Assembly: GCF_001524445.2 (NCBI RefSeq)
Contig: NZ_CP013418.1
Location: 1,302,001 to 1,366,000 of the forward strand
DNA: 64,000 nt
Origin: Burkholderia savannae
Lineage (GTDB): Bacteria > Pseudomonadota > Gammaproteobacteria > Burkholderiales > Burkholderiaceae
Reading direction: 5' to 3'
The position numbers and the translations under genes were made by a program. The notes under the pieces were generated by a model. The model did not search any database and was not told the DNA's origin. It saw only the letters and a program-made list of their open reading frames with translations. The stretch's first letter is position 1, and every line of letters begins with the position of its first letter. Below are positions 6,440 through 49,371 of the stretch, one piece after another.

Positions 6440-6519
6440 TCCGTTGTGCCCGTCGCGGGCTGCCCCGTCGCGGCCCGCCGTTCGCCGCCTGGCGTCCGCC
6501 GTCGGCCGCGCCGTCCGCC

Positions 6520-6547: not shown

Positions 6548-6804
6548 GTCTGCCGTCTGCCCATCCGCCATCCGCCGATCGTCCGATCCGCCGGCTCGAT
6601 GATTCGATGATTCGGCCGCCCGCCGGCCCGACCGCTCACTCGCCGGCCGTTCGTCCGGCAGATCGCTCCCCATTTCAACTTCCGTTTCGACGCCCATTTC
6701 ACCCCGTAGCGGCCCACGCCGCGCCGCCGCGCTTTTCGCCGACGAATTAGGAGAAGTACTCATCACAAACGCACGCTCGCGCGCGGTCAGTTGCTATAAG
6801 ATGC

Positions 6805-6823
6805 TTACATTGATCAATGTCAC
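6805..6823. promoter_or_regulatory. Palindromic operator upstream of the M24/EphD-like operon
   Basis: TTACATTGATCAATGTCAC contains a perfect 14-bp palindrome, ACATTGATCAATGT (6807-6820), about 85 bp before the first gene of the operon. A near-identical site (16 of 19 positions) occurs at 37865-37883 before an SDR gene. The size and symmetry fit a TetR-type operator. No TetR gene is in the window, so the regulator is unknown. Confidence 0.6.
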
Positions 6824-6904
6824 ATTTGCTGACGCAGCGCAATGACGGCACGCATCCGCGGCCGGCATCGCCGTTCAGAACGACGAAGAAAGGGAGACGA
6901 CGCC

Positions 6905-7792
6905 ATGGCCGAGCATCCGCTGCCGGAAATCCATATCGAAGAGCTGGACCAGTTCCGCTCCGTCCAGCAGCTCGCGTACCGCTGCGTCGAGACGGTCGGC
7001 GACATGCTGTACCCCGGCATCACCGAGAAGCAGGCTGCGAAGCTGATGATCGAATGGGCGCAGGACCACGGCGTGCACGACTGGCTGCACAAGCCGTTCG
7101 CGTGGTTCGGCGATCGCACCGCGTTCGAGGGCTTCTCGGGACTGAAGCACCTGGGCGGCTTCAACCTCGCATTCTTCCCGAGCAACCGCACGCTCGAGCC
7201 CGACATGCCGGTGATCCTCGACGTCGCGCCCGTCGTCGACGGAATCGTCGCCGACGTCGGCTACGCAACCTGTCTCGGCCACAACCCGGTCCTCGAGCAA
7301 CTGCAGGACGACCTGATCGCGCACCGCGAGATGATCGTGAAGCTCGTCAAGGAGCGCCGCACGCTCGCCGAAGTCGCGCAGGAAGTCGACGCGCTGTGCC
7401 GCCGCCAGGGCGTCGAGCCGCGCCACAAGGCGTATCCGTTCAAGGTGCTCGCGCATCGCGTCGCGAAGCTGCACAAGCTGTCGAAGCCGCGTTTCGTCGC
7501 GCGCTTCGGCCTCAACTCGACGCGCAACCTGCTGCTCGAGCAAACGCGCGCGGGCAAGGAACAGGGCTGGTCGCCGCTGTGGTCGATCGACGCGCGCTCC
7601 GATCACGCGCCGACGCCCGGCCTCTGGGCGGTCGAGCCGCATCTCGGCTTCGCCGGCGTCGGCGCGAAATTCGAGGAGTTGCTCGTCATCACCGACGACG
7701 ACGCGTACTGGCTCGATGACGACCTGCCGCACGTGCGCCGCTGGCACGCGCGCGAGGCGAGCAAGCAGCTTGCGCAAGAACAGGCCGCGTGA
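6905..7792 (+). CDS. M24-family metallopeptidase-like protein
   Basis: A 295-residue protein with the pita-bread fold of Xaa-Pro aminopeptidases/methionine aminopeptidases. It has the segment DVAPVVDGIVADVGYA carrying the first two metal-binding Asp positions, later VEPHLGF and KFEELLVIT containing the probable Glu ligands, and a His-containing stretch between. Whether it is an active peptidase is not certain; many members in lipid-type operons are of unknown function. The ATG at 6905 follows AGGGAGACGACGCC. It starts an operon with the EphD-like fusion (49 bp downstream) and the PF10118 protein, and the palindrome at 6805-6823 probably controls all three. Confidence 0.85.
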   Translation: MAEHPLPEIHIEELDQFRSVQQLAYRCVETVGDMLYPGITEKQAAKLMIEWAQDHGVHDWLHKPFAWFGDRTAFEGFSGLKHLGGFNLAFFPSNRTLEPDMPVILDVAPVVDGIVADVGYATCLGHNPVLEQLQDDLIAHREMIVKLVKERRTLAEVAQEVDALCRRQGVEPRHKAYPFKVLAHRVAKLHKLSKPRFVARFGLNSTRNLLLEQTRAGKEQGWSPLWSIDARSDHAPTPGLWAVEPHLGFAGVGAKFEELLVITDDDAYWLDDDLPHVRRWHAREASKQLAQEQAA

Positions 7793-7841
7793 CCGGATTC
7801 GCCGCGCGCCCTCCTTTCCGACAACAAGACAAGACATCACG

Positions 7842-9632
7842 ATGCAGCCTCTTTCCGACGAAGCGCCGCTCGCGCTGTTCGAATCGGTTCACGCCGAAAC
7901 CGCCGTTCCGGCCGGCGACGTCACGCTCGCCGCGAAGACCTGGGGCGACGCGTCGCGTCCCGCCGTCGTGCTCGTGCACGGCTACCCCGACAGCAGCAGC
8001 GTCTGGCACCGCGTCGCGCCGCTGCTTGCGAAGTCTTACTACGTGATCGCGTACGACGTGCGCGGCGCGGGCCTGTCGACGAAACCCGCGCGCACGGCCG
8101 ACTACCGGCTCGAGCGGCTCGTCGACGATTTCGTCGCGGTGATCGACGCGCTCGCGCCGAAGCGCGCGGTCCACGTGATCGGCCACGACTGGGGCTCGAT
8201 TCAGGGCTGGGAGTTCGTCACCGAGCCGCGGCTCGCGGGGCGCATCCTGTCGTACACGTCGTGCTCCGGGCCGAATCTCGACCACGTCGGCTACTGGCTG
8301 CGCCAGCAGCTCGCGCGTCCGTCGCCCGCGTCGATCAAGCGTCTCGGCGGCCAGCTCGTGCGCTCGTGGTACGTGTATCTGTTCCATCTGCCGTTCATCC
8401 CCGAGCTCAATTGGCGTCTGTGGCTCGGCCGCGCGTGGCCTTCGCTGATGCGCCGGCTCGAGCGCACCGACGTCGGCCCGCGCCCGACGCAGACCGAGGA
8501 CGGCGTGAACGGCGTGCGCCTCTATCGCGCGAACTTCATCCGCCGCGTGTTCGCGCCGCGCGAGCGCTACGCGCACGCGCCCGTGCAGGTCGTCGTGCCG
8601 CTGCGCGACAAGTTCGTGAGCCCCGCGCTGTCGGCCGACATCGCGCGCTGGGTGCCGGCCTATTACCGCCGCGAAGTGGCCGAGCGGCACTGGCTGCCGA
8701 TGTCCGAACCCGAACGCTTCGCCGCGCTCGCGCAGGAGCTGATCGAAGCGGTCGAGACGGGCGCGGAGCCGCCCGCGCTCGCGCTTGCGCGCCGCGCGAG
8801 CGGCACCGGGCCGTTCGTCGGCAAACGCGTCGTGATCACGGGCGCGGGCAGCGGCATCGGCCGCTGCGCGGCCGTCGAATTCGCGAAGCAAGGCGCGTCG
8901 ATCGTCGCCGTCGACATCGACGAGCAGGCGGCCGAGCGCACCGCGCTCCTCGTGCGCCTGCTCGGCGTCGAGGCGCACGTGCGGCGCGTCGATGTCGGCT
9001 CGGCCGACGACATGGAAGCGCTCGCGAATTGGGTCGGCGACGAGCTGGGCGGCGCGGACATCGTCGTCAACAACGCGGGCATCGGCATGGCGGGCGGCAT
9101 TCTCGACACGTCGGCCGCGCACTGGGAGCGCATCCTGCGCGTGAACCTGTGGGGCGTGATCCACGGCTCGCGCCTGTTCGCGAAGCAGATGGCCGCGCGC
9201 GGCGCGGGCGGCCACATCCTCAACACGGCGTCGGCGGCCGCGTTCGGCCCGTCGCGCGACCTGCCCGCCTACGCAACGACGAAGGCCGCGGTGCTGATGC
9301 TCAGCGAATGCATGCGCGCCGAGCTCGCGGATCACGGCATCGGCGTGACGGCCGTGTGCCCCGGCTTCGCCGAGACCGGCATCATGGCGTCGACCCAGTA
9401 CGCGGGCGCGAAGAGCGCGCAGGACGAAGCGCGGCTGCGCAAGCGCGCGACGAAGCTTTATCAGATGCGCGGCCTGAAGCCGGAGACGGTCGCGAAGGCG
9501 ATGGTCGACGGCGTGCTGCAGAACAAGGCGGTCGTCGCGATCGGCGCGGAGGCGCACGCGATGCGTTTCGTCGGGCGCTTCACGCCGTGGCTCGGCCGGA
9601 TGATCGCCCGCATCAGCATGGCGTCGCATTGA
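7842..9632 (+). CDS. EphD-like fusion: alpha/beta hydrolase + short-chain dehydrogenase
   Basis: A 596-residue two-domain enzyme. Residues about 1-300 form an alpha/beta hydrolase with HGYPDSSS (oxyanion region) and GHDWGS, whose Asp is the nucleophile type of epoxide hydrolases and dehalogenases. Residues about 318-590 form an SDR with the nucleotide motif TGAGSGIG, the NNAG motif and the catalytic YATTK. This architecture matches mycobacterial EphD, where the SDR half acts on mycolic ketones; that substrate is not expected here. It sits between an M24 protein and a PF10118 protein with short gaps, so a lipid or alkyl-substrate modification pathway is likely (inference). The start at 7842 removes a low-complexity upstream extension. 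Confidence 0.9.
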   Translation: MQPLSDEAPLALFESVHAETAVPAGDVTLAAKTWGDASRPAVVLVHGYPDSSSVWHRVAPLLAKSYYVIAYDVRGAGLSTKPARTADYRLERLVDDFVAVIDALAPKRAVHVIGHDWGSIQGWEFVTEPRLAGRILSYTSCSGPNLDHVGYWLRQQLARPSPASIKRLGGQLVRSWYVYLFHLPFIPELNWRLWLGRAWPSLMRRLERTDVGPRPTQTEDGVNGVRLYRANFIRRVFAPRERYAHAPVQVVVPLRDKFVSPALSADIARWVPAYYRREVAERHWLPMSEPERFAALAQELIEAVETGAEPPALALARRASGTGPFVGKRVVITGAGSGIGRCAAVEFAKQGASIVAVDIDEQAAERTALLVRLLGVEAHVRRVDVGSADDMEALANWVGDELGGADIVVNNAGIGMAGGILDTSAAHWERILRVNLWGVIHGSRLFAKQMAARGAGGHILNTASAAAFGPSRDLPAYATTKAAVLMLSECMRAELADHGIGVTAVCPGFAETGIMASTQYAGAKSAQDEARLRKRATKLYQMRGLKPETVAKAMVDGVLQNKAVVAIGAEAHAMRFVGRFTPWLGRMIARISMASH

Positions 9633-9668
9633 GCGGCGAAGCCGCCCCGACCGTTGGAGGAGACATCG

Positions 9669-10577
9669 ATGAATGCCCCTGAAAATCACTACCTGATCAA
9701 GGCGCGCCACGTCAAATTCGATTTCGCCAAGACACCGATCCAGTGGATCGAAGGCGATCCCGAAAGCACGCACATCATCAACACGCTGAACCTGCTGTTC
9801 CCGGAAGGCGAGCTGTGGTTCTGCCGCGTGTACAACAAGGCGCTGCCCCTCATCACCGATCCGGCGCTGCACGCGGACGCCGACGGCTTCCTGCGTCAGG
9901 AAGCCGTGCATTCGCGCTCGCACGGCAGCGTGCTCAAGCACTACTACGAGCGGCATGGGATCGACACCAAACCGTTCACGCAGCGGATCAACTGGCTCTT
10001 CACGAAGGTACTGGGCGAACGCCCGCTCGGCCTGAAGATCGGCCACACGCGCTTCTGGCTGCGCCAGCAGCTCGCGGTGATCGCATCGCTCGAGCACTTC
10101 TTCGGCTATCTCGGCAACTGGGTGCTGAACGCGCGTGGGCTCGACGACGGCCGCGCCGATCCGACGGTCGTCGATCTGCTGCGCTGGCACGGTGCGGAGG
10201 AAGTCGAGCACCGGGCCGTGGCGTTCGACATTTACCAGCATCTCGGCGGCCACTATGTCGAGCGCGCGGTCCACATGACGTTCGTGATCCTGGTGCTGCT
10301 CTACTTCATCACGTCGGGCGCGAAGTACATGTACGAGCGCGATCCGAGCACCGGCCGCTATCCGGGCTTCGTGCTGTCGTGGTGGCGCGGGTCGCGCCGC
10401 GGCCATCTGCCGTCGTTCTGGAAGACGATCGGCGCGGCGCTGCGCTATTACCGGCCGAGCTACACGCCGCACGGCGAAGGCTCCACCGAGGTCGCGCTCG
10501 CATATCTCGCGCGCTCGCCAGCGGCGCAGGCCGCCGCGCACGGCGGCAACTGGGGAACGGGGAAGGCAGCGCCCTGA
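9669..10577 (+). CDS. PF10118-type predicted metal-dependent hydrolase
   Basis: A 302-residue protein of the 'predicted metal-dependent hydrolase' family. Probable metal ligands are visible as QEAVHSRSH (near residue 85), an IASLEHFFG helix and AEEVEHRAVAFDIY (near residue 180), the spacing expected of a ferritin-like di-metal site. Hydrophobic residues near 200-220 (FVILVLLYFITSG) could be a membrane-associated helix. The ATG at 9669 has GGAGGAGA upstream, better than the TTG five codons earlier. It is the last gene of the M24/EphD-like operon. The reaction is unknown; a link to lipid oxidation is inferred from neighbours. Confidence 0.85.
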   Translation: MNAPENHYLIKARHVKFDFAKTPIQWIEGDPESTHIINTLNLLFPEGELWFCRVYNKALPLITDPALHADADGFLRQEAVHSRSHGSVLKHYYERHGIDTKPFTQRINWLFTKVLGERPLGLKIGHTRFWLRQQLAVIASLEHFFGYLGNWVLNARGLDDGRADPTVVDLLRWHGAEEVEHRAVAFDIYQHLGGHYVERAVHMTFVILVLLYFITSGAKYMYERDPSTGRYPGFVLSWWRGSRRGHLPSFWKTIGAALRYYRPSYTPHGEGSTEVALAYLARSPAAQAAAHGGNWGTGKAAP

Positions 10578-10749
10578 CGCGACGGCGGACGGGCACCGTG
10601 CGAGCACGCGCGGGGCCCGATTCGATTCACTTTGTGTGCCCGCGTGCCGTCCGCTTCGCCGGCGCAGCACTCGTCGCTTCAGTTCAGCGGCGTCTCGGCC
10701 GCTCGCATCACCGCCTGGCCGGGTCGTCGCGCTTCGCCGGCTTGCCGTA

Positions 10750-10805
10750 CTTCTCGCCTTCTCGCCTTCTCGCCTTCTCGCCTTTGAGCCTTTGAGCCTT
10801 TGAGC
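10750..10805. repeat. Two-part octamer tandem array
   Basis: Four perfect copies of CTTCTCGC run directly into three perfect copies of CTTTGAGC, keeping one 8-bp register over 56 bp. It lies in the 624-bp gene-free stretch 10578-11201, downstream of the PF10118 gene and upstream of pepM. The remainder of that stretch before 11090 shows no convincing gene. Confidence 0.9.
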
Positions 10806-11094
10806 CTTCCGGCGCATCGAACGACGCACGTACCCACCTTGCTCGATTCGTGTCGCGCCGCGGCCGCCGCCCGCAGTCGCCGCGCATGCCACCGGAACCT
10901 GCGCCATTGGACAACCTCGGCACCTCGCGCTCGCCGTGCCGCGCCGCCTTTCGATCCATTCGCCCCGCGCCATCCCGGCACACCTGGAAAACGCCTGTGC
11001 GCGCCGAGCCCCATGCCGCCGATGCCGAAAACGGAATGAACGCGCCGCTTGTTGCCGTCTCCGTCGATCCGTACATTCGCGGCACGCACGCGTG

Positions 11095-11109
11095 ACTTTA
11101 TTTCACGGA
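11095..11109. promoter_or_regulatory. Putative LysR-regulator site upstream of pepM
   Basis: ACTTTATTTCACGGA recurs as ACTTTATGTCACGGA at 16573-16587 between lysR and tauE/safE. Here it overlaps the inverted repeat CGTGA-N7-TCACG (11091-11107) and ends 7 bp before a TTGACA -35 hexamer, where an activating LysR protein would bind. Confidence 0.6.
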
Positions 11110-11116
11110 AGCCGGT

Positions 11117-11145
11117 TTGACATTGTCATCCAATCTTCATAAACA
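11117..11145 (+). promoter_or_regulatory. Candidate sigma-70 promoter of the phosphonate operon
   Basis: A perfect TTGACA (11117-11122) is followed after 17 bp by TAAACA (11140-11145), a poor -10. The surrounding 100 bp are markedly AT-rich compared with the genome. A weak -10 would suit activation from the adjacent putative LysR site. Confidence 0.4.
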
Positions 11146-11201
11146 ATAACAATGACCCCGAACTTAAATTATTAAATTGCTTCATTTACAAGGAGCAAAT
11201 C

Positions 11202-12113
11202 GTGCCGATAAGAGAATTAATAAGCGCGCCGATTACCAACGAACAAAGACGTCGATCATTTCGGGACAAACTGGCGGCCGGCCGCGCGCTGCGCTTCATC
11301 GAAAGCCACAGTCCGATTTCCGCAATGATCAGCGAGAAGGTTTACGTGGCGGACGGTGCCACGCAATCCGAGTTCGACGGCTTCTGGTCGAGCTCGCTGA
11401 CCGACTCGACGCTGCGTGGCCGGCCCGACATCGAGATCCTGGACATCGCGAGCCGGCTGCCGAACGTCCAGCACATTTTCGATGTCACGACCAAGCCGCT
11501 CATCATCGACGGCGACACGGGCGGCAAGCCCGAACACTTCGCGCTGAATGTCCAGTCTCTGGAACGATCCGGCGTGTCGGCGGTGATTATCGAAGACAAA
11601 ACGGGGTTGAAGAAAAATTCGCTGCTCGGCAACGACGTGATTCAACACCAGGAATCGATCGACGACTTCTGCGAAAAGATTCGCGTCGGCAAAGCGGCGC
11701 AGATCACCGACGATTTTCAGATCATCGCCCGCGTCGAAAGCCTGATTCTCGACAAGGGCATGCCGGACGCGCTCGAACGCGCGGCCGCCTACTGCGAAGC
11801 CGGCGCCGACGGCATCATGATCCACAGCCGGAAGAAGGACGCGGACGAAGTCGTCGAATTCGCGCAGCGGTTTCGCGCGCTCGGCCACGACGCGTATCTC
11901 GTCTGCGTTCCGACGAGCTTCAATGCGATCTCGTTCGGCGAGCTCGCGCGGCACTTCAGCGTCGTCATCTACGCGAATCATCTGTTGCGCGCCGCTTATC
12001 CGGCGATGCTGGCGGTCGCGGAAGGCATCCTCGCGCACGGCCGCACGCTCGAAATCGAGGAGCGCTGCCTGCCTGTCAATGAAATCCTGAAGCTCATTCC
12101 GGGAACCGCCTGA
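11202..12113 (+). CDS. pepM: Phosphoenolpyruvate mutase (C-P bond formation)
   Basis: A 303-residue isocitrate-lyase-superfamily enzyme that rearranges PEP to phosphonopyruvate, the entry step of almost all phosphonate biosynthesis. The diagnostic mutase motif EDK-x5-NS is intact at residues 131-140 (EDKTGLKKNS). The metal-binding DGDTGG lies about 30 residues earlier and the active-site WSSS segment near residue 62. The start is GTG at 11202 with AGGAG six bases upstream. The decarboxylase gene begins 2 bp after the stop, so the two are co-translated. That coupling makes sense because the mutase equilibrium strongly favours PEP and needs irreversible decarboxylation to pull it (established for the family). 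The 5' flank is unusually AT-rich, compatible with lateral acquisition. Confidence 0.96.
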   Translation: MPIRELISAPITNEQRRRSFRDKLAAGRALRFIESHSPISAMISEKVYVADGATQSEFDGFWSSSLTDSTLRGRPDIEILDIASRLPNVQHIFDVTTKPLIIDGDTGGKPEHFALNVQSLERSGVSAVIIEDKTGLKKNSLLGNDVIQHQESIDDFCEKIRVGKAAQITDDFQIIARVESLILDKGMPDALERAAAYCEAGADGIMIHSRKKDADEVVEFAQRFRALGHDAYLVCVPTSFNAISFGELARHFSVVIYANHLLRAAYPAMLAVAEGILAHGRTLEIEERCLPVNEILKLIPGTA

Positions 12114-12115
12114 CC

Positions 12116-13330
12116 ATGAAATCGGAAGACCTGATCGGCATACTGACCGATGCCGGCGTCGACCTCGCGGCCGGCGTTCCGGATTCCTTATTGAAATCGT
12201 TCTGCGGTCGCCTGAACGATCCGGATTGTCCGCTTCGTCACATCGTCGCGAGCAGCGAGGGGGCCGCGATCGGCATCGCGATCGGCCACCATCTCGCGAC
12301 GGGCCGCATGCCGGCCGTCTACATGCAGAACTCCGGCATCGGCAATGCGATCAATCCGCTCGTGTCGCTCGCGGATCGCGCGGTGTACGGCATTCCGCTC
12401 GTGCTGATCGTCGGCTGGCGCGCGGAAATCGCGGCGGACGGCTCGCAAGCGCACGACGAGCCGCAGCACGCGACGCAGGGCCGCATCACGCTGCCGCTGC
12501 TCGACGCACTGTCGATCCGTCATCTCGTGTTGAACCGCGCGTACGACGATGACGCGGCGATCGCGCGGCTGATCGATGACGCGCGGCGCACGTCGCAGCC
12601 CGTCGCACTCGTCGCGCGCAAGGATACGTTCGACGATGCGCCCGCCCACCGGACGAACGTCGCACACGCGCAGCTCGGCAAAATGACGCGCGAACGCGCG
12701 ATCGAGCTGATCGTCGAGCATGCGGGCGACGCGACGGCGATCGTGTCGACGACGGGCGTCGCGTCGCGCGAGCTCTATGAGCTGCGCGAACGGCTCGGCC
12801 AGTCGCACGCGCGCGATTTCCTGACGGTCGGCGGCATGGGCCACGCGTCGCAGATCGCGGTCGGCATCGCGCTCGCCCGCCCACGACAACAGGTGATCTG
12901 CATCGACGGAGACGGCGCGCTGCTGATGCATATGGGCGGCCTCGCATACTGCGCGAGCGCGCCGAACCTCGTGCACGTCGTCATCAACAACGGCGTCCAC
13001 GATTCCGTCGGCGGACAGCGCACGCTCGCCGCGCAGTTGCGGCTTTCGCACATCGCGGCATCGTGCGGCTACGCGTTCGCCCGGACCGTCGCGACGCCGA
13101 TCGAGCTGGAGAGCGCGCTTCATCACGCAAGCCTCCTGGACGGCAGCGCGTTCATCGAAGTGACGTGCCAGCCAGGCTATCGAAGCGATCTCGGCAGGCC
13201 GCGCACGTCGCCCGCCGAGAACAAGCGCGGTTTCATGGCGTTCCTATCCCACAACGGAGCAACACATGATCGAAACGACCACGCGCAGGAAAGTGGCGTA
13301 CAGGACGCTGTCCAGTGCGCTCGGCAGTGA
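12116..13330 (+). CDS. ppd: Phosphonopyruvate decarboxylase (ThDP-dependent)
   Basis: A 404-residue ThDP enzyme that converts phosphonopyruvate to phosphonoacetaldehyde plus CO2. The N-terminal PYR domain carries the catalytic-Glu region SSEGAAIGIAIGHHLATG. The C-terminal PP domain has the ThDP/Mg motif IDGDGALLMHMGG (GDG at residues 265-267) ending in INN near 290-292, then GVHDSVGGQ, typical of Ppd proteins. It begins 2 bp after pepM. Its last 65 bp overlap the dioxygenase start, an unusually long overlap: the final ~22 residues look unlike the family and may be a recent read-through tail. No phosphonoacetaldehyde aminotransferase gene is nearby, so 2-aminoethylphosphonate is not the obvious product. 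Confidence 0.94.
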   Translation: MKSEDLIGILTDAGVDLAAGVPDSLLKSFCGRLNDPDCPLRHIVASSEGAAIGIAIGHHLATGRMPAVYMQNSGIGNAINPLVSLADRAVYGIPLVLIVGWRAEIAADGSQAHDEPQHATQGRITLPLLDALSIRHLVLNRAYDDDAAIARLIDDARRTSQPVALVARKDTFDDAPAHRTNVAHAQLGKMTRERAIELIVEHAGDATAIVSTTGVASRELYELRERLGQSHARDFLTVGGMGHASQIAVGIALARPRQQVICIDGDGALLMHMGGLAYCASAPNLVHVVINNGVHDSVGGQRTLAAQLRLSHIAASCGYAFARTVATPIELESALHHASLLDGSAFIEVTCQPGYRSDLGRPRTSPAENKRGFMAFLSHNGATHDRNDHAQESGVQDAVQCARQ

Positions 13331-14144
13331 GGTGTACGGCTTCGACACGCCATTCCCTAACGATTCCGACGCCGTTCGGACGCTGATCGACGCGTGGCAT
13401 GCGGGCGGCATCTGCCGGCTTCGCCAGCAGCGGCTCGGCATGGCGGAGTTCGTCGAGTTCAGCCGGATCTTCGGCAAGCCCGAACGCGCGCTGAACCAAG
13501 AGCAGAAGCTGACGTCGCGCGACGATCTGCCCGAGCTGATGATCGTGTCGAACATCTTGGAGAACGGCGTGTCGATCGGGCATCTCGGCTCGAAGGAAGC
13601 GTACTGGCACACCGACATGTGCTACACCGACGTGCCGCCCATCGCGAGCATCCTGTATGCGATCGAGGTTCCCGCGCATGGCGGCAACACCGAGTTCATG
13701 AACATGTACAGCGTCCACGACGCGCTGCCCGCGTCGCTGCGCAAGCGGGTCGCCGGCCTGTCGATCAAGCACGATCGCAGCTACACCGCGGTCGGCGAGC
13801 TGCGCTATGGGTTCGACTCCGTCGTCGACGTGACCGCCTGCCCCGGCTCGGTCCATCCGATCGTGCGCGTCCATCCGGTCACGCAGCGGCCGTATCTGTA
13901 TCTCGGGCGCCGATTGAACGCGTACGTCGTGGGCCTGCCCGTCGACGAATCGGAAGCGCTCCTCGACGAACTGTGGCGCTACACGCGGCTCGACGGCATC
14001 ACCTGGACGCAGCGATGGGAAGTCGGCGACATCATGATCTGGGACAACCGCTGCACGATGCATCGGCGCGATGCGTTCGACGAGCATGCGCGGCGCCTGA
14101 TGTGGCGCACGCAAATCGAGGCCGATCCCGCGCGGCCGCTGTAG
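13266..14144 (+). CDS. TauD/TfdA-family Fe(II)/2-oxoglutarate dioxygenase
   Basis: A 292-residue non-heme iron dioxygenase. The iron facial triad is visible as H115-x-D117 (YWHTDMCY) and H266 (CTMHRRDAF), with the 2-oxoglutarate-binding Arg about ten residues later (HARRLMW). Length and layout are those of TauD. The ATG at 13266 follows ACGGAGC and lies inside the 3' end of ppd. Within a pepM operon such an enzyme usually hydroxylates or oxidatively rearranges a phosphonate intermediate; relatives do this in the dehydrophos pathway and in 2-AEP catabolism. The substrate here (phosphonoacetaldehyde, phosphonoacetate or a later product) is inference. Taurine oxidation is unlikely in this context, because sulfonate uptake genes are absent. 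Confidence 0.9.
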   Translation: MIETTTRRKVAYRTLSSALGSEVYGFDTPFPNDSDAVRTLIDAWHAGGICRLRQQRLGMAEFVEFSRIFGKPERALNQEQKLTSRDDLPELMIVSNILENGVSIGHLGSKEAYWHTDMCYTDVPPIASILYAIEVPAHGGNTEFMNMYSVHDALPASLRKRVAGLSIKHDRSYTAVGELRYGFDSVVDVTACPGSVHPIVRVHPVTQRPYLYLGRRLNAYVVGLPVDESEALLDELWRYTRLDGITWTQRWEVGDIMIWDNRCTMHRRDAFDEHARRLMWRTQIEADPARPL

Positions 14145-14181
14145 CACCCGCACATCCGACACGAACGATTGCGAGGCCCAA

Positions 14182-15654
14182 TTGACCGCTCATCGCACCG
14201 CCGCTTTCGACCGCGTCGCGCGCGCGCTCGGCGCCCGTGGCAAAACGTCGTCCGGCACGACGCTCATCGTCAGCAATCCGTACAATCGCGAAACGATCGC
14301 CGAACTGCCGCTTAACGACGGCGACGACGCGCGGCGCAAACTGCAGGCCGCCGCGCGTTTCAGGAGCACGCTCAGCCGCCACGACCGCATCGCCGTGTTC
14401 GAAAAGGCAATCGCGTTGCTCGCGGCCGAAAAGCGCGACGCGTCGATCCTCGTCACGCTCGAATCGGGCCTGTGCCGCAAGGACACGATGTACGAGATCG
14501 ACCGCGTGATCAACGTGCTGCGCGCGGCGATCGTCGAGCTGAACCGAGACGACAGCCAGACATTCTCGTGCGACAACACGTCGAGCGCCGACAAGCGCAA
14601 GATCTTCACCGTTCGCGAGCCGCTGCGCGGCGTCGTCGCCGCGATCACGCCGTTCAACCACCCGATGAACCAGGTCGCGCACAAGATCTGTCCGGCGATC
14701 GCGTCGAACAACCGCGTCGTGCTGAAGCCGTCGGACAAGACGCCGCTGTCGGCGCTGTACCTGCTCGATCTGTTTCGCGAAGCCGGATTGCCGGAACCGA
14801 TGTTCGACGTCGTGATCGGCGAGCCGGACGTGGTCGGCTCCGAGCTCGTTCGCAACGAGCATGTCGAACTCGTCGCGTTCACCGGCAGCGTCGCGGTCGG
14901 CAAGCGGATCGCCGAGATGGCCGGCTATCGGCGCGCGATCCTCGAGCTCGGCGGCAACGATCCGCTGATCGTGATGGAGGACGCCGACCTCGACCGCGCC
15001 GCGCGACTCGCCGCCAGGGGCTCCTACAAGAATTCCGGTCAGCGCTGCACCGCGGTCAAGCGCATCCTTGTCGAGCGATCCGTCGCGGGCAAGTTCATCG
15101 AACTGCTCGTCGAACACAGCCGAAGCTGGAAAACCGGCGATCCGATGGACGAGCACGTCGACATCGGCACGCTGATCGACGATGCGGCCGCGACCGAATG
15201 CGCGCGACGCGTCGACGAGGCGGCAGACGCCGGCGCACGCGTGTTGTTCGGCCATCGCCGCGACGGCGCCGCCTATGCGCCGACCGTGCTCGACCGCGTC
15301 GATCCGGCGCTGCGGCTCGTCCAAGAGGAGACGTTCGGCCCCGTGTCGCCCGTGATCACGTTCTCTGGCGTCGACGAAGCAATCGCGATCGCGAACGGCA
15401 CGCGATACGGATTGTCATCGGGCGTGTGCACGAACCGGTTCGACTACATCATGCACTTGATCGCCCATCTCGATGTCGGCACCGTCAACGTGTGGGAGGT
15501 GCCGGGCTTCCGGATGGAAAGCACGCCGTTTGGCGGCGTCAAGGATTCAGGGCTCGGCAGCAAGGAAGGCATGCAGGAGGCGATCAAGAACTTCACGAAC
15601 CTGAAGACCTATTCGCTGCCGTGGGGCCCGCTCGCGCAACCCGATGCGGCATGA
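14182..15654 (+). CDS. NAD(P)-dependent aldehyde dehydrogenase, probable phosphonoacetaldehyde dehydrogenase
   Basis: A 490-residue ALDH-superfamily protein. The general-base Glu is E255 in LELGGNDP and the nucleophilic Cys is C289 in NSGQRCTAVKR; the C-terminal EETFGPVSPVITF motif is intact. The first in-frame start is TTG at 14182 with GAGG just upstream, 37 bp after the dioxygenase stop. In this operon the obvious substrate is phosphonoacetaldehyde from Ppd, giving phosphonoacetate, as PhnY-type dehydrogenases do; a hydroxylated aldehyde made by the dioxygenase is the alternative. The family alone would also allow succinate-semialdehyde or glyceraldehyde-3-phosphate type substrates, so the assignment rests on context. 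Confidence 0.88.
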   Translation: MTAHRTAAFDRVARALGARGKTSSGTTLIVSNPYNRETIAELPLNDGDDARRKLQAAARFRSTLSRHDRIAVFEKAIALLAAEKRDASILVTLESGLCRKDTMYEIDRVINVLRAAIVELNRDDSQTFSCDNTSSADKRKIFTVREPLRGVVAAITPFNHPMNQVAHKICPAIASNNRVVLKPSDKTPLSALYLLDLFREAGLPEPMFDVVIGEPDVVGSELVRNEHVELVAFTGSVAVGKRIAEMAGYRRAILELGGNDPLIVMEDADLDRAARLAARGSYKNSGQRCTAVKRILVERSVAGKFIELLVEHSRSWKTGDPMDEHVDIGTLIDDAAATECARRVDEAADAGARVLFGHRRDGAAYAPTVLDRVDPALRLVQEETFGPVSPVITFSGVDEAIAIANGTRYGLSSGVCTNRFDYIMHLIAHLDVGTVNVWEVPGFRMESTPFGGVKDSGLGSKEGMQEAIKNFTNLKTYSLPWGPLAQPDAA

Positions 15655-15683
15655 AGGAACGGGCATGCGCGATGCGGCGCGCG

Positions 15684-16565
15684 TCAGCCGGCAGCCGCCG
15701 CCGCGAGCCAGTCCTCGAACTTGCGATGCAGCGCCGTCTTCTGAATGCCGATCGGCGTGACCACATAGTAATCGTGCGGCGCCACCCGGATGTCGCCGAA
15801 CGGCGCGACGATCCTGCCGCTCGCGAAATCGCGGCTCAGCGTGACGACCGGCCCGATGCCGACGCCGAGATCGTCGACGATGCCCTGGAACGTCACATGA
15901 AAATGATCGAAGCGCTGCCGCCTCGTGAAGCGGTTCGCGTCCAGTTTCGCCGCAGCGAACCAGTCGTCCCAGTGGCGCGGGCGCGTTTCGGTTTCGAGGA
16001 TCGTATGGCGTGCGAGATCCTCGAGACGATCGAGCGGCACGCGGCTCAGCAGCGACGGCGATGCGACGACCGTGTGATGATCGCTGAGAAAGCGGATCGC
16101 CGATTGGGGATTGAAGACCTGATCGTCGCGTCTTATCGCGACGTCGCAACTCCCGCCGCTCGGCTGTTGCTGCGTCGTGACGGTCAACACCTGCACCATC
16201 GCGTCCGGATGCGCGTCGCGAAACGCCGCGAGACGGGGAATCAGCCAGCGCATGCCGAACGTCGTCGGCACGCTGATGCGCAGCACTTGCCGCGCGCTGC
16301 CCTTGCCGTAGCGCTGAACGATGTCCGTCAGCGCGTCAAGCGCGCCGCCGAGCTCCTGCGCGAACGCTCGCGCATGCACGGACGGGACCATCCGCTGACC
16401 GTCCTTCTCGAAGAGGCTCGTGCCGAGCCACGATTCCAGCGTCTGAATCTGGCGGCTGACCGCGCTGTGCGTGACGCACAGCTCGTCGGCTGCCGCCGTG
16501 AAGCTTCCCGCGCGGCACGCGACCAAAAACGTTCGGATTGCCGCCAATGGGGGGAGTGCCGACAT
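15684..16565 (-). CDS. LysR-family transcriptional regulator (GcvA-like)
   Basis: A 293-residue LysR protein: N-terminal winged HTH with AADELCVTHSAVSRQIQTLE (residues about 26-45), then a periplasmic-binding-protein-like effector domain beginning around residue 95 (LRISVPTTFGMRWLIPRL). It is convergent with the aldehyde dehydrogenase gene (29 bp apart) and divergent from tauE/safE, the usual geometry for a LysR regulator and its target. The 15-bp sequence just upstream of its own ATG (16573-16587) is shared with the pepM promoter. It therefore probably controls itself, the exporter and the phosphonate operon. The co-inducer is unknown, perhaps a phosphonate intermediate. Confidence 0.93.
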   Translation of the reverse strand: MSALPPLAAIRTFLVACRAGSFTAAADELCVTHSAVSRQIQTLESWLGTSLFEKDGQRMVPSVHARAFAQELGGALDALTDIVQRYGKGSARQVLRISVPTTFGMRWLIPRLAAFRDAHPDAMVQVLTVTTQQQPSGGSCDVAIRRDDQVFNPQSAIRFLSDHHTVVASPSLLSRVPLDRLEDLARHTILETETRPRHWDDWFAAAKLDANRFTRRQRFDHFHVTFQGIVDDLGVGIGPVVTLSRDFASGRIVAPFGDIRVAPHDYYVVTPIGIQKTALHRKFEDWLAAAAAG

Positions 16566-16572
16566 GGCTCGT

Positions 16573-16594
16573 ACTTTATGTCACGGATGCGTGA
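16573..16594. promoter_or_regulatory. Putative LysR-regulator site in the lysR-tauE/safE divergent region
   Basis: ACTTTATGTCACGGA (16573-16587) matches the pepM upstream site at 14 of 15 positions and continues into TCACG-GATG-CGTGA (16581-16594), a 5-bp inverted repeat. It lies 7 bp from the lysR start codon, suiting autoregulation, and about 95 bp upstream of the exporter ATG. Confidence 0.6.
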
Positions 16595-16681
16595 AATTTT
16601 AGCACTGTGCCCGACTTGCCGATTGACTACGATGCAAGATCGTCCCCAATCCGGAGGTCGACTGGTCGAAGAGGATTTTCA

Positions 16682-17407
16682 ATGACTGCTTATGCGATCG
16701 TATTGCTGATCGGCGTCGTCGCGGGCGTCGTCAGCGGCGTCATCGGAACCGGTGCGTCGATCATGCTGCTGCCGCCGCTCGTGTTCTATTTCGGTCCGAA
16801 GCAGGCCGTGCCGATCATGGCGATCGCCGCCGTGCTGGGCAACGTCTCGCGCGCGTACGTGTGGCGCCGCGACATCGCATGGAAAGCGTTCTTCGCCTAT
16901 TCGATCGCCGCCGCGCCGGCCGCCATGCTCGGCGCGCGGACGCTGTGGGTGCTCAAGCCGCAATGGGTCGACTGCGCGCTCGGCGTGTTCTTCCTGTCGA
17001 TGATCCCATACCGATACGTAGCAAGCCGAAACAAATTTTCATTGTCCGCGTGGCAGTTGTCCGCAGCGGGCGCGGTCGTCGGCTATCTGACCGGCATCGT
17101 GTTCTCCACCGGCCCGCTGACGCTGCCGATCTTCTCCGCCTACGGGCTGCTCAAGGGCGGCCTGCTTGCAACCGAAGCAGCGGCGTCGCTCGTCGTCTAT
17201 GCGAGCAAGCTTGCCGCGTTCGGTCAGCTTGGCGGCCTGCCGCTCGACGTGGTGATCAAGGGCACGCTCGTCGGCGCATCGCTATCCGCGGGCATCTCGA
17301 TCGGCAAGGCGGTCACGCTGCGCCTGTCGACGAGCGCGTTCCACCGGCTGCTCGATCTCGTGATGCTGTCGGCCGGCACGACGCTGCTGTGGGGCGCGAT
17401 GCGCTGA
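16682..17407 (+). CDS. TauE/SafE-family permease (probable organic anion exporter)
   Basis: A 241-residue integral membrane protein of the TauE/SafE family, with about seven to eight hydrophobic segments starting AIVLLIGVVAGVVSGVIGTG, whose Gly-rich first repeat is typical. The ATG at 16682 has AAGAGGA upstream and is preferred over an in-frame ATG 25 codons earlier that adds an Arg-rich, non-membrane tail. Family members export sulfite or sulfoacetate; sulfoacetate is the sulfonate analogue of phosphonoacetate, and SafE works with a sulfoacetaldehyde dehydrogenase. Together with the neighbouring aldehyde dehydrogenase and the shared regulatory site, export of phosphonoacetate or a related phosphonate is the best guess (inference). 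Confidence 0.88.
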   Translation: MTAYAIVLLIGVVAGVVSGVIGTGASIMLLPPLVFYFGPKQAVPIMAIAAVLGNVSRAYVWRRDIAWKAFFAYSIAAAPAAMLGARTLWVLKPQWVDCALGVFFLSMIPYRYVASRNKFSLSAWQLSAAGAVVGYLTGIVFSTGPLTLPIFSAYGLLKGGLLATEAAASLVVYASKLAAFGQLGGLPLDVVIKGTLVGASLSAGISIGKAVTLRLSTSAFHRLLDLVMLSAGTTLLWGAMR

Positions 17408-17843
17408 TTCGAAGCCCGTGCGTCAGCCGGACCGAATAGCCGCTGCGCGCTCGGCGCGCCACGTGCCATTCGCGTTTGCGGCGAAGCCACGTTGCCGATT
17501 CGGCAACGATCCGGCAACGATCCGTTTGCGGCTCGCGTTGCCGTCGCGGAGTCGAACGACTCGCCGTGCGCCGGTCCGCTCGATTCCGCGATACGGCACA
17601 CGCGATCGCTTCACGCAGGCCTCGCATTGCGCCACCTATCTGATGTCGACATCCCCCTTTCGACGACTCGGCGCCCGCGCCAGTCCGGCCGTGACGCGAA
17701 CCACGCTGCCGCGGCGCAACGGATTCGTTCCGCCCTACTGAGGACCGCGCGCCGCGGCGGCATGCGCCGCCGGCTGGCATCGTCGTCGCGAACGCCGCGT
17801 CGCGCCGGCGAACACGGCAATCGCGCTTGCCACAATATTTTCG

Positions 17844-18025
17844 TTGACAAGCCAACGAAGGATGACGAAACTCATCGACATGGATACGCGCCTGCACATC
17901 GCCATCGTAAATGCCCACCCGCCAATGAACGCCCGTTGTGGCGTGTCACCGGGGGCGCTCGCGCGTTAGCTATCCGCAACATCGGATGTCAAGAGGCCCC
18001 CGCCGGAAACGGTTGGGGCCTTTTT
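17844..18025 (+). ncRNA. Candidate small RNA or attenuated leader
   Basis: A TTGACA (17844-17849) with a weak -10 (GAAACT, 17867-17872) precedes a stretch without an ORF that ends in a strong intrinsic terminator at 17994-18025, about 45 bp before the DUF2917 start codon. A roughly 145-nt transcript would result. It could be a free small RNA or a premature terminator in the DUF2917 leader. No known RNA family was recognised. The remainder of 17408-17843 shows nothing convincing. Confidence 0.35.
17994..18025 (+). terminator. Intrinsic terminator upstream of the DUF2917 gene
   Basis: AGGCCCC (17994-18000) pairs with GGGGCCT (18015-18021) around a 14-nt loop and is followed by a T run (18021-18025). 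It faces the + strand and sits before, not after, a recognised gene. Confidence 0.7.
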
Positions 18026-18069
18026 CATTGCGCTGCGCTCCTTCCGCCGGCTCTATTCAGGAGAAGACG

Positions 18070-18456
18070 ATGGACCAGGCAAGCCGGTTGTTATTTCGTC
18101 CCGATTCGACGCGGCACGACGGATATGACGCGATCCAGCTGCCGCGCATGACGCTTCACTTCGCGCTCGAGCCGCGCGCGATGATGACGTGGCTTGCGCG
18201 CAGCCACACCGAGATCCGCGTGCTGAGCTCGCGCGTCTGGCTCACGCGCTCGTACAGCGTCGACGACTACTGGCTGCGGCCGGGTGACGTGCTACACGTG
18301 CCGCGCGGCGAGCGCATCTGGCTCAGCGCCGACGGGCCGTCCGCCGCGGAGGTCTCGCTGACGACGGCGTACGCGCGCCGGCGCGGCTGGATCGGCGGCA
18401 TGATCGACGGGCTGCTCGACATCGCGGCGGATCTGACCAGTCCGCGCCCGCGTTGA
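18070..18456 (+). CDS. DUF2917-family protein
   Basis: A 128-residue protein of the DUF2917 family, common in Burkholderia. It has a small cupin-like beta-rich core with TEIRVLSSRVWLTRS and the turn LRPGDVLHVPRGERIWL. Function is unknown. The ATG at 18070 follows CAGGAGAAG. It stands alone, behind the intrinsic terminator at 17994-18025, so its expression may depend on read-through or on a promoter inside that leader. No signal peptide is visible. Confidence 0.8.
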   Translation: MDQASRLLFRPDSTRHDGYDAIQLPRMTLHFALEPRAMMTWLARSHTEIRVLSSRVWLTRSYSVDDYWLRPGDVLHVPRGERIWLSADGPSAAEVSLTTAYARRRGWIGGMIDGLLDIAADLTSPRPR

Positions 18457-19190
18457 CGCGTCGTGCGAGCAGACGCAGAGGCATGCCGCGCCGGCTCGAC
18501 GCGACAGACGCCGTTGTGAACCGTTTGGCGTCTGTTGCTTCGCGCGATGAAGCGGAACAACGGACGCCTCGCGAAAGCGACGGTGAAGCTCACCGTCGCG
18601 TCGCATGCATTTCGCGCAGTCGCGTCGCCTTCTATCATCAGGACCGCTATGTATTTCGAAGCCGAGAGAAACGAAATCACCAAGTGGCCGATCGATGCCG
18701 GTACCGCGTGACGCGACTTCGCCCGTCGCCCGCGCCCGTCGAATACCGTCGGCCGTGCGTCGTCATCGGATGCATCGGATCGGAGCGCTCACGCACGACC
18801 GATCGAACAAAATCGCGCGCCGCCCTTCGAATCGCGATGCGCGCACGATGATCCGTCGACGCACGACAACTGCGAACTCGGTTCGCGCGGATGCCCCGCC
18901 GACGGCCAGCCGCCAGCCGCATCGCGCACGTCGTGCCGAATCGCATGACCGCGAGCACGCGATTCCTGCATGCAAGCGCGCACGGCGTTTCAGGAAAAAT
19001 GAGGAAACGTTGCGCGCACCGGTTCGGTCCGTTCCCCGAACGAACGCACGCAACGCATGTGTTGAACGACGACGCCCCGATCGATGAACGGCGCGCTCGA
19101 AATGGCGGCGAAGCGCGCACGACAAAGCGCGCCGAAAACATCGCGGCCGGCGGGCACGTGCCGCACGCCGCGAACCGTTCGCACGCGACG
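18457..19190. other. Gene-free stretch
   Basis: A 734-bp interval between the DUF2917 gene and the small helical-protein gene. All open frames here are Arg/Ala-rich without ribosome binding sites and look like products of the high GC content. No RNA gene or repeat was recognised. Confidence 0.6.
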
Positions 19191-19475
19191 TTACGTGCTC
19201 GCCGCGAGACGCGGCCCCGACGCGCCGCGCACGGCCGTCGACGGCTCTTCGTCGGTCTTTTGCACCTGCGCGCTCACCCAAGGATCGATGCCTTGCTTCT
19301 GCACCTCTTCGAGAAACGACACGCGCGCGCGCCAGTAATCGGCCTGCAGCTTCGCGTCGATCACGCGCTGCTCGGCGGCGAACAACTCCATCCGTGCAGT
19401 CACGAGCATCGACGCCGCGCTCTTCTCGGGAGTGGGGGCGTGACGCAACGCCCATCGGCTGATCCAGTTCAACAT
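19191..19475 (-). CDS. Small helical protein of unknown function
   Basis: A 94-residue protein not recognised as a named family. Its centre (residues about 20-65, SMLVTARMELFAAEQRVIDAKLQADYWRAR split by charged residues) is predicted to be one long amphipathic helix, possibly a coiled coil; the C-terminus is polar and probably disordered. The ATG at 19475 has GGAGG six to ten bases upstream, much better than the start of the longer open frame. It stands alone between two gene-poor stretches. The good ribosome binding site and ordered helical core are the reasons for calling it real. Confidence 0.65.
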   Translation of the reverse strand: MLNWISRWALRHAPTPEKSAASMLVTARMELFAAEQRVIDAKLQADYWRARVSFLEEVQKQGIDPWVSAQVQKTDEEPSTAVRGASGPRLAAST

Positions 19476-20376
19476 GCTTGCCTCCGTATTGACGGATGAA
19501 ATCGCGTGGGGCGCGTCCCACCTGCGAAACCCTGCCCCTGCACTCACCTTCAGCTGCCACTGCGAAATGCGCCGATTCCCGCGTCCGCTCCCGGCACCCG
19601 ACGGCCCCGACGCGAGCATTGTCTCTATCCTAGTGAGAGAATCGCGTTAATGCGATGACGACTTGCATTCTTTTACACAAGCCACCTTATTGCAACATCC
19701 TAAAAAACAACGATATCCCATTGATCCAGAAGAAAAATATCCGTCGAAAAATATATGTAAACACCTATCTCTAAAATCAACGGATTTGTAGCAGGAATTG
19801 GGTGAATTTCCGGATGTCGATCGTTTGGCAGCGCATGCTTTCGACCGAAACCTTACGCCGATTCTCATGGACTTTTTTCTTTTCATGCGATTGGCGCGGG
19901 CATCATGCGGCCGCAAAGCCGGCGAGCTTGCCTGCCGTGCAATCCGCCAGGAATCGCGCGAGGCTGGCCATGCAGCCGCATGTTTCGACCGCGTACGGTC
20001 GAACATGACGCCGTACCGGCATGCACGACAATGGGGCGTCGCGCCGTCGCAACGCGCGAGCACGCGCCATTGCGGCATGAAAGTCCATCACGTCGCATTC
20101 GGCCGATTTCGATGCGCCCACTCGGTCGCGCCTGCGATACGGCTCGCCGTTGCTTTCGAAGATATTACGATCGGCAATGCGAACCATGCGTGACGGTCCG
20201 CCACTCGCACGCAACTTGTTCGCCACTCGTGCGCATATCAAGCCGTCATTCGTGCGCGGCGCGTCGACCCGCCACGCACCGCATGTCGTCACCGGCTCGG
20301 CGTCGCGTGCGGCGCGCACAACGCGCGCAATGCGTCAGTCACGCGCAACGTTCATCCGCAAGCCGCATTCCGTCCG
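19476..20376. other. Gene-free stretch with an AT-rich patch
   Basis: About 900 bp without a convincing gene. Around 19650-19800 the sequence becomes strikingly AT-rich (for example AAAAATATATGTAAACACC) against the GC-rich background, a possible promoter zone for the small-protein gene on the minus strand or a trace of foreign DNA. The open frame on the minus strand at 19647-20078 lacks a ribosome binding site and family features. Confidence 0.5.
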
Positions 20377-20877
20377 TCATCCGAGCCCGCCTTCGTCGGG
20401 CCACCGGTAACCGAGCAGCCTCGAACGCGCATACGCGAACTCGCGTACCGCGCCGCGCTGATTGCCGCCGAACAGATACACACGTTCGTCGTCGTGCCGC
20501 ACATAGAAGCCGACATGCCCTCGCCAGCTCGTCGGACGATCGCGCGTCAGCACGGCGACGCATCCATAGGCCGGCTCGCTCAGCGCACGGCCCCACTCGA
20601 GCCACGATCGCGCGAGCGCCGAGCCCGTTCCCGATATCCCGACGCGCGCGAAACACCAGTTGACGAACGACGAGCACCACGAAATCTTGTCGTCGTAGCC
20701 GGCGAGATTCGTGCAGCCGTTGTATTCGATGATGCGCGGATTGCTTGCGCCGGCCCTGAAACGCCGAACGCCCTGTTCCGCGAGCGCGACGGACATCCAG
20801 GCAGGATGGCCGGCATCGGCTTGCTGTTCGCCGTGCGCCGGCACGACGCTTTCATGCATTCGAGCGATCGACGTCAA
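20377..20877 (-). CDS. TIGR02594-type/NlpC-P60-like amidase
   Basis: A 166-residue protein resembling the TIGR02594 group of putative cell-wall amidases. The likely catalytic Cys is in ISWCSSFVNWCFARVG (near residue 70) and the probable His in SWRGHVGFYVR (near residue 120), followed by GGNQRGAVREFAY, the usual order of a papain-like Cys-His pair. No signal peptide is visible, so export would need another route. The TTG start at 20877 is favoured because GGAGAG lies 8 bases upstream; an ATG six codons later is possible. It stands alone, not in a phage module; related genes often occur in type VI secretion or phage contexts. Confidence 0.7.
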   Translation of the reverse strand: MTSIARMHESVVPAHGEQQADAGHPAWMSVALAEQGVRRFRAGASNPRIIEYNGCTNLAGYDDKISWCSSFVNWCFARVGISGTGSALARSWLEWGRALSEPAYGCVAVLTRDRPTSWRGHVGFYVRHDDERVYLFGGNQRGAVREFAYARSRLLGYRWPDEGGLG

Positions 20878-21258
20878 GCTGAACTCTCCAGTTCGTGAAT
20901 AGGCGGCGCACCGGCACGGGCGTCGACGCCGTTCGTTGTTCGTTGTTCGACGCCGCCAGGGCGCCGCACGCGGCGCACGCCCTTCTCGCTACCGGCAAGC
21001 GGTCATTTTAACGACTCGCCGACGAACGCGTGCGCGGACGCCGCCCGCCCGAATTCTCGCCGCGCTCGCTGCGCGAGCCGCCGCGAGCGCGATGTCGAAT
21101 CGCGATCAATCGCCGCAAATATATCGTCCCGCCTATGTCCGCTATTACAATCCGCCGATAGCCGCCCAATAGTGGCTGGTTACAGTACGTCCGCCACGCG
21201 GGCAACACAACTCACAAAGCATTCAGCAACACGACTACTCGACCGGAGAATCGCCCAC
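20878..21258. other. Intergenic stretch upstream of the purine permease
   Basis: A 381-bp divergent region between the amidase-like gene and the AzgA-type permease. It holds a low-GC segment near 21110-21160 that may contain promoter elements, but no hexamer pair was convincing. No riboswitch fold was recognised. Confidence 0.4.
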
Positions 21259-49364: not shown

Positions 49365-49371
49365 GCCGCGA

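What the first reader, a model, noticed from the sequence alone, without database searches (positions are those of the whole stretch)
11091..17407. Compact phosphonate biosynthesis locus with no aminotransferase: a phosphonoacetate-type end product?
Seen: PEP mutase with intact EDK-x5-NS, phosphonopyruvate decarboxylase, a TauD-like dioxygenase with complete iron ligands, an aldehyde dehydrogenase with catalytic Cys and Glu, a LysR regulator and a TauE/SafE exporter. Known: PepM plus Ppd make phosphonoacetaldehyde. Usual next steps are an aminotransferase (2-AEP) or an alcohol dehydrogenase (hydroxyethylphosphonate); neither is present. Inference: the aldehyde is oxidised to phosphonoacetate and hydroxylated before or after by the dioxygenase, giving a small secreted phosphonate. 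No lipid- or glycan-attachment gene is nearby, so a diffusible product is more likely than a phosphonolipid.
Basis: partly seen in the sequence, partly recalled or inferred. Interest (0 to 1): 0.9.

Follow-up and report, generated by a model that had tools for sequence, protein, structure and literature searches.

The report
Six-gene phosphonoacetate-type phosphonate operon
A compact gene set in a Burkholderia genome looks built to make, oxidise and probably export a small carbon-phosphorus compound derived from phosphonoacetate; the pathway idea is already in print for a close relative, so this is a well-supported new member rather than a new kind of system.

Summary
Observation confirmed: pepM, ppd, a TauD/TfdA dioxygenase, an ALDH, a divergent lysR and tauE fill window 11202-17407. 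The ALDH passes the curated cut-off for phosphonoacetaldehyde dehydrogenase, PhnY, and has the His/Arg pair seen in 10 of 10 PhnY-type sequences and 0 of 6 other ALDHs compared. PEP to phosphonoacetate is thus well supported; hydroxylation to 2-hydroxy-phosphonoacetate and export are inferred.

A shared T-N11-A box before pepM and between lysR and tauE, in both genomes, has one other match in 15 Mb, though the pattern was written from these sites. The ALDH pair is a distinct branch from PhnA-adjacent PhnYs.

The argument for a diffusible product is weak: phosphonolipid-type genes lie about 94 kb away. PMC12723261 credits Yu et al. 2013 with proposing this hydroxylation in B. pseudomallei, which has 85-90% orthologues. 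New member of a known, predicted kind.

The parts
11092..11106 (.). LysR-type box GTGACTTTATTTCAC (T-N11-A dyad), 95 bp gap to the pepM start
   Evidence: counterpart upstream of pepM in L098 at 7201-7215
11202..12113 (+). pepM, PEP phosphomutase (GTG start, N-terminus shared with P0122)
   Evidence: TIGR02320 413.2 bits over cut-off 319.55; phosphonopyruvate hydrolase model TIGR02321 138.9, under its cut-off 374.4; P0122
12116..13330 (+). ppd, phosphonopyruvate decarboxylase, one gene
   Evidence: TIGR03297 504.4 bits over 312.5
13266..14144 (+). TauD/TfdA-family Fe(II)/2-oxoglutarate dioxygenase; overlaps the end of ppd by 65 bp (62 bp in L098)
   Evidence: PF02668 212.1 bits; ligand positions invariant; best solved relatives RdpA type; overlap
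14182..15654 (+). phosphonoacetaldehyde dehydrogenase, PhnY family, distinct branch
   Evidence: TIGR03250 822.0 over 635.65; 4i3t E 5.1e-141; tree; residues
15684..16565 (-). LysR-type regulator, divergent from tauE
   Evidence: PF00126, PF03466; GcvA-subfamily model 236.1 bits, under its cut-off 288
16591..16605 (.). LysR-type box GTGAAATTTTAGCAC in the lysR-tauE gap
   Evidence: counterpart in L098 at 12675-12689
16682..17407 (+). TauE/SafE-family membrane protein, putative anion exporter (ATG preferred to the GTG at 16607)
   Evidence: PF01925 92.9 bits; 82% to L098; start by eye

Best explanation
A self-contained, LysR-controlled biosynthetic operon. Supported by family membership: PepM makes phosphonopyruvate, Ppd pulls the equilibrium by decarboxylation to phosphonoacetaldehyde, and the PhnY-type ALDH oxidises this to phosphonoacetate. 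Inferred: the dioxygenase hydroxylates phosphonoacetate on its only C-H carbon, giving 2-hydroxy-2-phosphonoacetate; TauE exports the small anion; LysR, probably answering to a pathway metabolite, controls pepM-ppd-tauD-aldh and tauE through the same T-N11-A box. Hydroxylation would also make the product unlike the substrate of the genome's own phosphonoacetate hydrolase (PhnA).
For: Equivalog cut-offs passed by PepM, Ppd and ALDH. ALDH H160 and R288 shared by 10 of 10 PhnY-type sequences (window, L098, L099, L102-L108) and 0 of 6 other ALDHs of this genome (the 6 held as loci, of 27 other ALDH matches). Six genes conserved in order and orientation in G052 (PepM 83, Ppd 70, TauD 84, ALDH 75, LysR 81, TauE 82 %) as one collinear block, window 11232-17403 vs L098 7335-13490, 79.5%. 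ppd/tauD overlap in both. Shared LysR box in both promoters of both loci; the pattern occurs 3 times in G000 (2 here) and 2 times in G052 (both here), reversed control 0. ALDH pairs with the G052 ALDH (100/100) apart from eight other PhnYs, 7 of 8 with PhnA in the locus. TauD- and RdpA-type enzymes attack the carbon next to an acidic anchor (recalled).
Against: No biochemical or metabolite data. Dioxygenase relatives of 43-54% identity have no PepM, Ppd or ALDH match at E 1e-20 in the DNA held (0 of 80 loci; many flanks are short), so the wider family is not phosphonate-specific, and its conserved residues do not single out a phosphonate substrate. The dioxygenase fails the taurine-dioxygenase and TmpA equivalogs, and TauE hits no NCBIfam model. 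The genome has PhnA (563.7 bits) and C-P lyase PhnJ (491.8 bits), which could consume intermediates. The operator pattern was written from the four sites it finds; the looser dyad is not enriched in the window (17 found, 21 expected). Where the ALDH pair joins the other PhnYs is unresolved.
Confidence: 0.55

Rival explanations
1. Same enzymes, other order: the dioxygenase first hydroxylates phosphonoacetaldehyde and the ALDH then oxidises the hydroxyaldehyde; the end product is the same.
For: tauD lies before the ALDH gene and overlaps ppd; the ALDH sits on its own long branch, as expected if its substrate differs.
Against: The PhnY-type residues are unchanged and the ALDH scores far above the phosphonoacetaldehyde dehydrogenase cut-off; gene order is a weak guide.
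Confidence: 0.15
2. The product is not free but becomes the head group of a phosphonolipid through the genome's separate phosphonolipid-type machinery.
For: PMC12723261 reports this suggestion, citing Yu et al. 2013 (passages). Both genomes with the operon hold a PepM-NTP transferase fusion (L100 10292-11965; 91% identical in G052); in G000 a CDP-alcohol phosphatidyltransferase stands beside it.
Against: That cluster has its own PepM, TPP enzyme (read as Ppd) and aminotransferase and so can supply 2-AEP by itself. In G052 the two lie on different contigs (C4 and C3). The operon carries its own TauE-type gene.
Confidence: 0.18
3. The dioxygenase oxidises the carbon twice, giving an unstable acylphosphonate that loses phosphite or phosphate; the unit would end in C-P cleavage.
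For: No tool result speaks for it; some 2OG dioxygenases oxidise twice (recalled), and phosphonoacetate has only one C-H carbon.
Against: A costly futile route; none of the six genes is a phosphite-handling enzyme; TauE suggests an exported anion.
Confidence: 0.06
4. The block is catabolic, a variant of the PhnWAY route.
For: The ALDH family is best known from catabolism; PhnA lies in the locus of 7 of 8 other PhnYs examined.
Against: No PhnA, PhnW or uptake transporter in the block; PepM and Ppd present; the genome has a separate PhnY-PhnA locus with, by eye, PhnW and ABC transporter genes (L099).
Confidence: 0.03

Closest known systems
B. pseudomallei TauD/phosphonoacetate proposal (Yu et al. 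2013 PNAS, as reported in passages of PMC12723261; original not held)
   Same: Phosphonoacetate hydroxylated by a TauD/TfdA enzyme to 2-hydroxy-phosphonoacetate; clusters named for B. pseudomallei are 90% (TauD, P0001) and 85% (Ppd, P0243) identical.
   Different: I could not read the original or see the B. pseudomallei locus; that it is the same six-gene unit is inferred. The reported end use is a lipid head group.
[quoted passage not shown] NRRL F-525 and the related K. fiedleri cluster (as reported in PMC12723261 section 11 and passages)
   Same: PepM, Ppd and a PhnY-like ALDH leading to phosphonoacetate; the K. fiedleri cluster also has two TauD/TfdA genes.
   Different: There Ppd is two genes and, in K. 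fiedleri, many more genes follow; here Ppd is one gene and the unit is six genes with LysR and TauE.
Catabolic PhnY-PhnA operons (e.g. L099, L104, L106, L108)
   Same: PhnY enzyme family.
   Different: No PhnA, PhnW or uptake system here; PepM and Ppd instead.
Flavophos (bsf) cluster of Burkholderia (PMC12871164; outline and text parts 1-2 of 8 read)
   Same: PepM-started phosphonate cluster in the same genus.
   Different: Uses a 2-phosphonomethylmalate synthase and a BKACE-like enzyme; no Ppd or ALDH among the six genes described.

Membership tests
   413.2 vs 319.55 bits; EDKTGLKKNS
Phosphonopyruvate decarboxylase (TIGR03297) | score over curated cut-off | tested here: met
   504.4 vs 312.5 bits
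Phosphonoacetaldehyde dehydrogenase PhnY (TIGR03250) | score over curated cut-off | tested here: met
   822.0 vs 635.65 bits
Phosphonoacetaldehyde dehydrogenase PhnY (TIGR03250) | catalytic Cys/Glu and PhnY-type His and Arg by the active site (roles recalled from Agarwal et al. 2014, not held) | tested here: met
   C289, E255, H160, R288; His and Arg in 10 of 10 PhnY-type and 0 of 6 other ALDHs
Phosphonoacetaldehyde dehydrogenase PhnY (TIGR03250) | activity on phosphonoacetaldehyde | not testable with these tools
   needs enzyme assay
TauD/TfdA Fe(II)/2OG dioxygenase | H-x-D...H iron ligands and 2OG-binding Thr/Arg (roles recalled) | tested here: met
   H115, D117, H266, T142, R277 invariant in 24 sequences; PF02668
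Taurine dioxygenase proper (NF007104) | score over curated cut-off | tested here: not met
   123.8 vs 313 bits
Trimethylaminoethylphosphonate dioxygenase TmpA (NF049936) | score over curated cut-off | tested here: not met
   27.4 vs 400 bits
Catabolic PhnWAY operon | PhnA and PhnW beside PhnY | tested here: not met
   neither among the six genes; the genome's only PhnA match lies at L099
Phosphonolipid cluster | nucleotidyltransferase and CDP-alcohol phosphatidyltransferase in the cluster | tested here: not met
   neither among the six genes; both in L100, about 94 kb away
Phosphonoacetate-derived phosphonate biosynthesis | PepM + Ppd + PhnY-type ALDH in one operon | tested here: met
   gene set conserved in G052
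Phosphonoacetate-derived phosphonate biosynthesis | phosphonoacetate or a derivative detected | not testable with these tools
   needs 31P NMR or LC-MS

The most novel reading that the evidence does not exclude
The six genes are a portable cassette that makes and exports free 2-hydroxy-2-phosphonoacetate, a small mimic of phosphoglycolate or tartronate, as a secreted antimetabolite or signal sensed by its own LysR regulator. A search on six spellings of the product's name listed 17 papers, and by title and abstract start only PMC12723261, with its proposal, concerned biosynthesis (listing).
Probability: 0.3. Interest if true: 0.6.

Novelty: new member of a known kind. Interest (0 to 1): 0.36.

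Why it matters
If right, phosphonoacetate, known mainly as a catabolic intermediate and the substrate of PhnA, has a dedicated biosynthetic operon in Burkholderia, and a proposal in print becomes directly testable with four enzymes from a non-listed relative. The regulatory boxes and cassette boundaries say which six genes to express together.

Tried and rejected
Catabolic reading: rejected for lack of PhnA, PhnW or uptake genes in the block and because a PhnY-PhnA locus exists elsewhere. Broken catabolic phnY: one search reported one TGA in the second PhnY match; the alignment has no stop in 461 aligned residues and ends two residues before the match does, so the TGA is most likely the gene's own stop; idea dropped. 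Phosphonopyruvate hydrolase instead of PepM: rejected by cut-offs. PF13714 hits L004 and L005 of the genome were not examined.

Context of the 61-66% dioxygenase homologues P0003-P0007 could not be found. Their longest-contig lengths equal none in the listed PepM and Ppd hits (120 rows listed each; one equal length, 7151, links the 53% homologue P0029 with Ppd P0311, which chance can give and which was not followed). A search of the plasmid collection gave 9 records, all under 60%.

Promoters: 0 found against 1.2 expected; a TTGACA downstream of the pepM box is by eye only. Terminators: 5 found, 5.5 expected. The looser dyad GTGA-N7-TCAC with one mismatch is not enriched in the window (17 found, 21 expected); in the four promoter regions there is one site each, against 3-5% of shuffles per region and 0 of 2000 shuffle sets for all four, and this dyad too was chosen after seeing the sites. 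A translated comparison of L098 with the window (first 20 rows outside the block shown) gave only short scattered matches of 17-53 residues, printed with E 0.0 probably through linkage with the main block; I took none as a shared flank gene. No structure prediction was run.
Full report
WHAT IS THERE. The window lies at G000:C2:1302001-1366000 of an unnamed 7.43-Mb, three-contig genome. The genus is Burkholderia by its nearest proteins; the dioxygenase is 90% identical to a protein cluster named for B. pseudomallei and the Ppd 85%, so it is most likely a relative and not that species. Six genes fill 11202-17407: pepM, ppd, a TauD/TfdA dioxygenase, an ALDH, a lysR gene on the other strand and tauE/safE. 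PepM, Ppd and the ALDH each pass the curated NCBIfam equivalog cut-off (413 vs 320, 504 vs 312, 822 vs 636 bits). The dioxygenase passes the broad Pfam TauD model and no NCBIfam equivalog, taurine dioxygenase and TmpA included. Its closest solved relatives are aryloxypropionate dioxygenases of the RdpA type.

THE ALDEHYDE DEHYDROGENASE. Its best solved match is 4i3t (E 5e-141, next best 5e-84), which I know from memory as the Sinorhizobium PhnY; the entry's title says only aldehyde dehydrogenase. Catalytic C289 and E255 are there. H160 and R288 are shared by the 10 PhnY-type sequences that I aligned (window, L098, L099, L102-L108) and by 0 of 6 other ALDHs of this genome, the six held as loci out of 27 further ALDH matches. 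In a 13-row tree the window ALDH pairs with the G052 ALDH (100/100) on a long stem, apart from eight other PhnYs; where the pair joins them is unresolved. PhnA lies in the locus of seven of the eight; L105 is the exception. One of the seven is this genome's own (L099: PhnY 59% identical, PhnA 563.7 bits, and by eye a PhnW-like gene and ABC transporter genes). So the operon has its own branch of PhnY and did not merely copy the resident catabolic gene.

ONE UNIT. Of 65 genomes of the genus, 2 had the dioxygenase at E <= 1e-60: this one and G052. Of 398 of the family, 2 at E <= 1e-80, the same two. Of 398 of the phylum, 1 at E <= 1e-90, this one. G052 is very probably Burkholderia sp. FERM BP-3421: its contig C4 is 3,899,588 bases, and a PepM and a Ppd of that name with that contig length are listed. 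There the same six genes stand in the same order and orientation (PepM 83, Ppd 70, TauD 84, ALDH 75, LysR 81, TauE 82 %). Nucleotide comparison of 19.9 kb around them with the window gives one collinear block of 6.2 kb that starts just inside pepM and ends at the end of tauE; the only other match is 44 bases. ppd and tauD overlap by 65 and 62 bp.

REGULATION. A dyad of the LysR T-N11-A type (GYGA-N7-KCAC) lies 95 bp before pepM and in the lysR-tauE gap, in both loci. The pattern GYGAVWTTWTWKCAC was written from these four sites, so that it finds them is by construction. What is informative is that it finds only one other place in the 7.4 Mb of G000 and none in the 7.7 Mb of G052, and that the reversed pattern finds none. 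The looser dyad with one mismatch occurs once in each of the four regions, against 3-5% of shuffles per region and 0 of 2000 shuffle sets for all four, but is not enriched over the whole window. The simplest reading is that this LysR controls both the biosynthetic genes and tauE.

HOW IT PROBABLY WORKS. From established chemistry (recalled, and the Figure 1 legend of PMC12723261, seen as a passage): PEP -> phosphonopyruvate (PepM) -> phosphonoacetaldehyde (Ppd) -> phosphonoacetate (ALDH). Inference: phosphonoacetate has one carbon bearing hydrogen, flanked by both acid groups, and TauD- and RdpA-type enzymes attack the carbon next to an acid anchor (recalled). A dioxygenase acting on it can therefore only give 2-hydroxy-2-phosphonoacetate, or an acylphosphonate on a second round. 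A hydroxylated product would differ from the substrate of the genome's own PhnA. Both genomes also have C-P lyase (PhnJ 491.8 and 486.5 bits) and PhnA. That makers also degrade is common in this family: a passage of PMC8931226 says almost half of the genomes with both traits in its set are Burkholderiaceae.

FREE OR LIPID-BOUND. But L100, about 94 kb away on the same contig, holds a CDP-alcohol phosphatidyltransferase, an LPG-synthase-like membrane protein, an NTP transferase, a PepM-NTP transferase fusion, a TPP enzyme that I read as Ppd and a class-V aminotransferase. G052 has the fusion too (91%, on another contig). PMC12723261 (passages; section 11) says that TauD/TfdA enzymes are proposed, from B. 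pseudomallei work of Yu et al. 2013, to hydroxylate phosphonoacetate to 2-hydroxy-phosphonoacetate, suggesting an alternative phosphonolipid head group in Burkholderia. The tauE gene inside the regulatory unit speaks for export of a free anion. I leave both open.

NOVELTY. The core idea is in print as a proposal for a close relative. I could not read Yu et al. 2013 (not held), so that its cluster is this one is inferred from the 85-90% orthologues. In the listings and passages of eight paper searches I saw no experimental demonstration of the hydroxylated product; the library lacks most subscription papers. A phosphonoacetate-derived natural product, O-PnAS, is reported from Streptomyces. What I add: the cassette boundaries, its different surroundings in two species, the shared operator, and the distinct PhnY branch.

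LIMITS. No expression, metabolite or enzyme data. The dioxygenase substrate is the weakest link: of 80 loci of its wider family (43-54% identity) none shows PepM, Ppd or ALDH in the DNA held at E 1e-20, though many flanks are short, and for the nearer homologues P0003-P0007 (61-66%) I could not see the neighbours.

Noticed in passing
L101 (G000:C1:540000-556000), 2459-8901, - strand: Another PepM locus: PepM, a class I/II aminotransferase, a PhyH-family dioxygenase and, by eye, an EamA-like transporter; looks like a phosphonoalanine-type cluster with a hydroxylase.
   Followed up: partly
L100 (G000:C2:1406000-1425000), 7017-14243, + strand: Phosphonolipid-type cluster with a PepM-NTP transferase fusion, a TPP enzyme and an aminotransferase; the ORF at 7720-8473 has no Pfam hit but an HYD motif by eye that suggests an iron oxygenase.
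   Followed up: partly
G000:C2:1762877-1762891 (L113): The only other match in this genome to the LysR-box pattern (GCGAGTTTTTTTCAC, - strand); the 3 kb around it showed no gene that I recognised as phosphonate-related.
   Followed up: partly
window 17408-21171: Nearly 4 kb just downstream without a coding-like ORF of 180 aa or more by codon-position GC; a CHAP-domain ORF of 166 aa lies on the - strand at 20377-20877.
   Followed up: no
window 41599-57704: By eye from ORF starts, a possible quaternary-amine catabolic stretch (hydroxyacyl-CoA dehydrogenase-like, DUF849-like, transporter, binding-protein and Rieske-type oxygenase-like genes); no family search was run.
   Followed up: no
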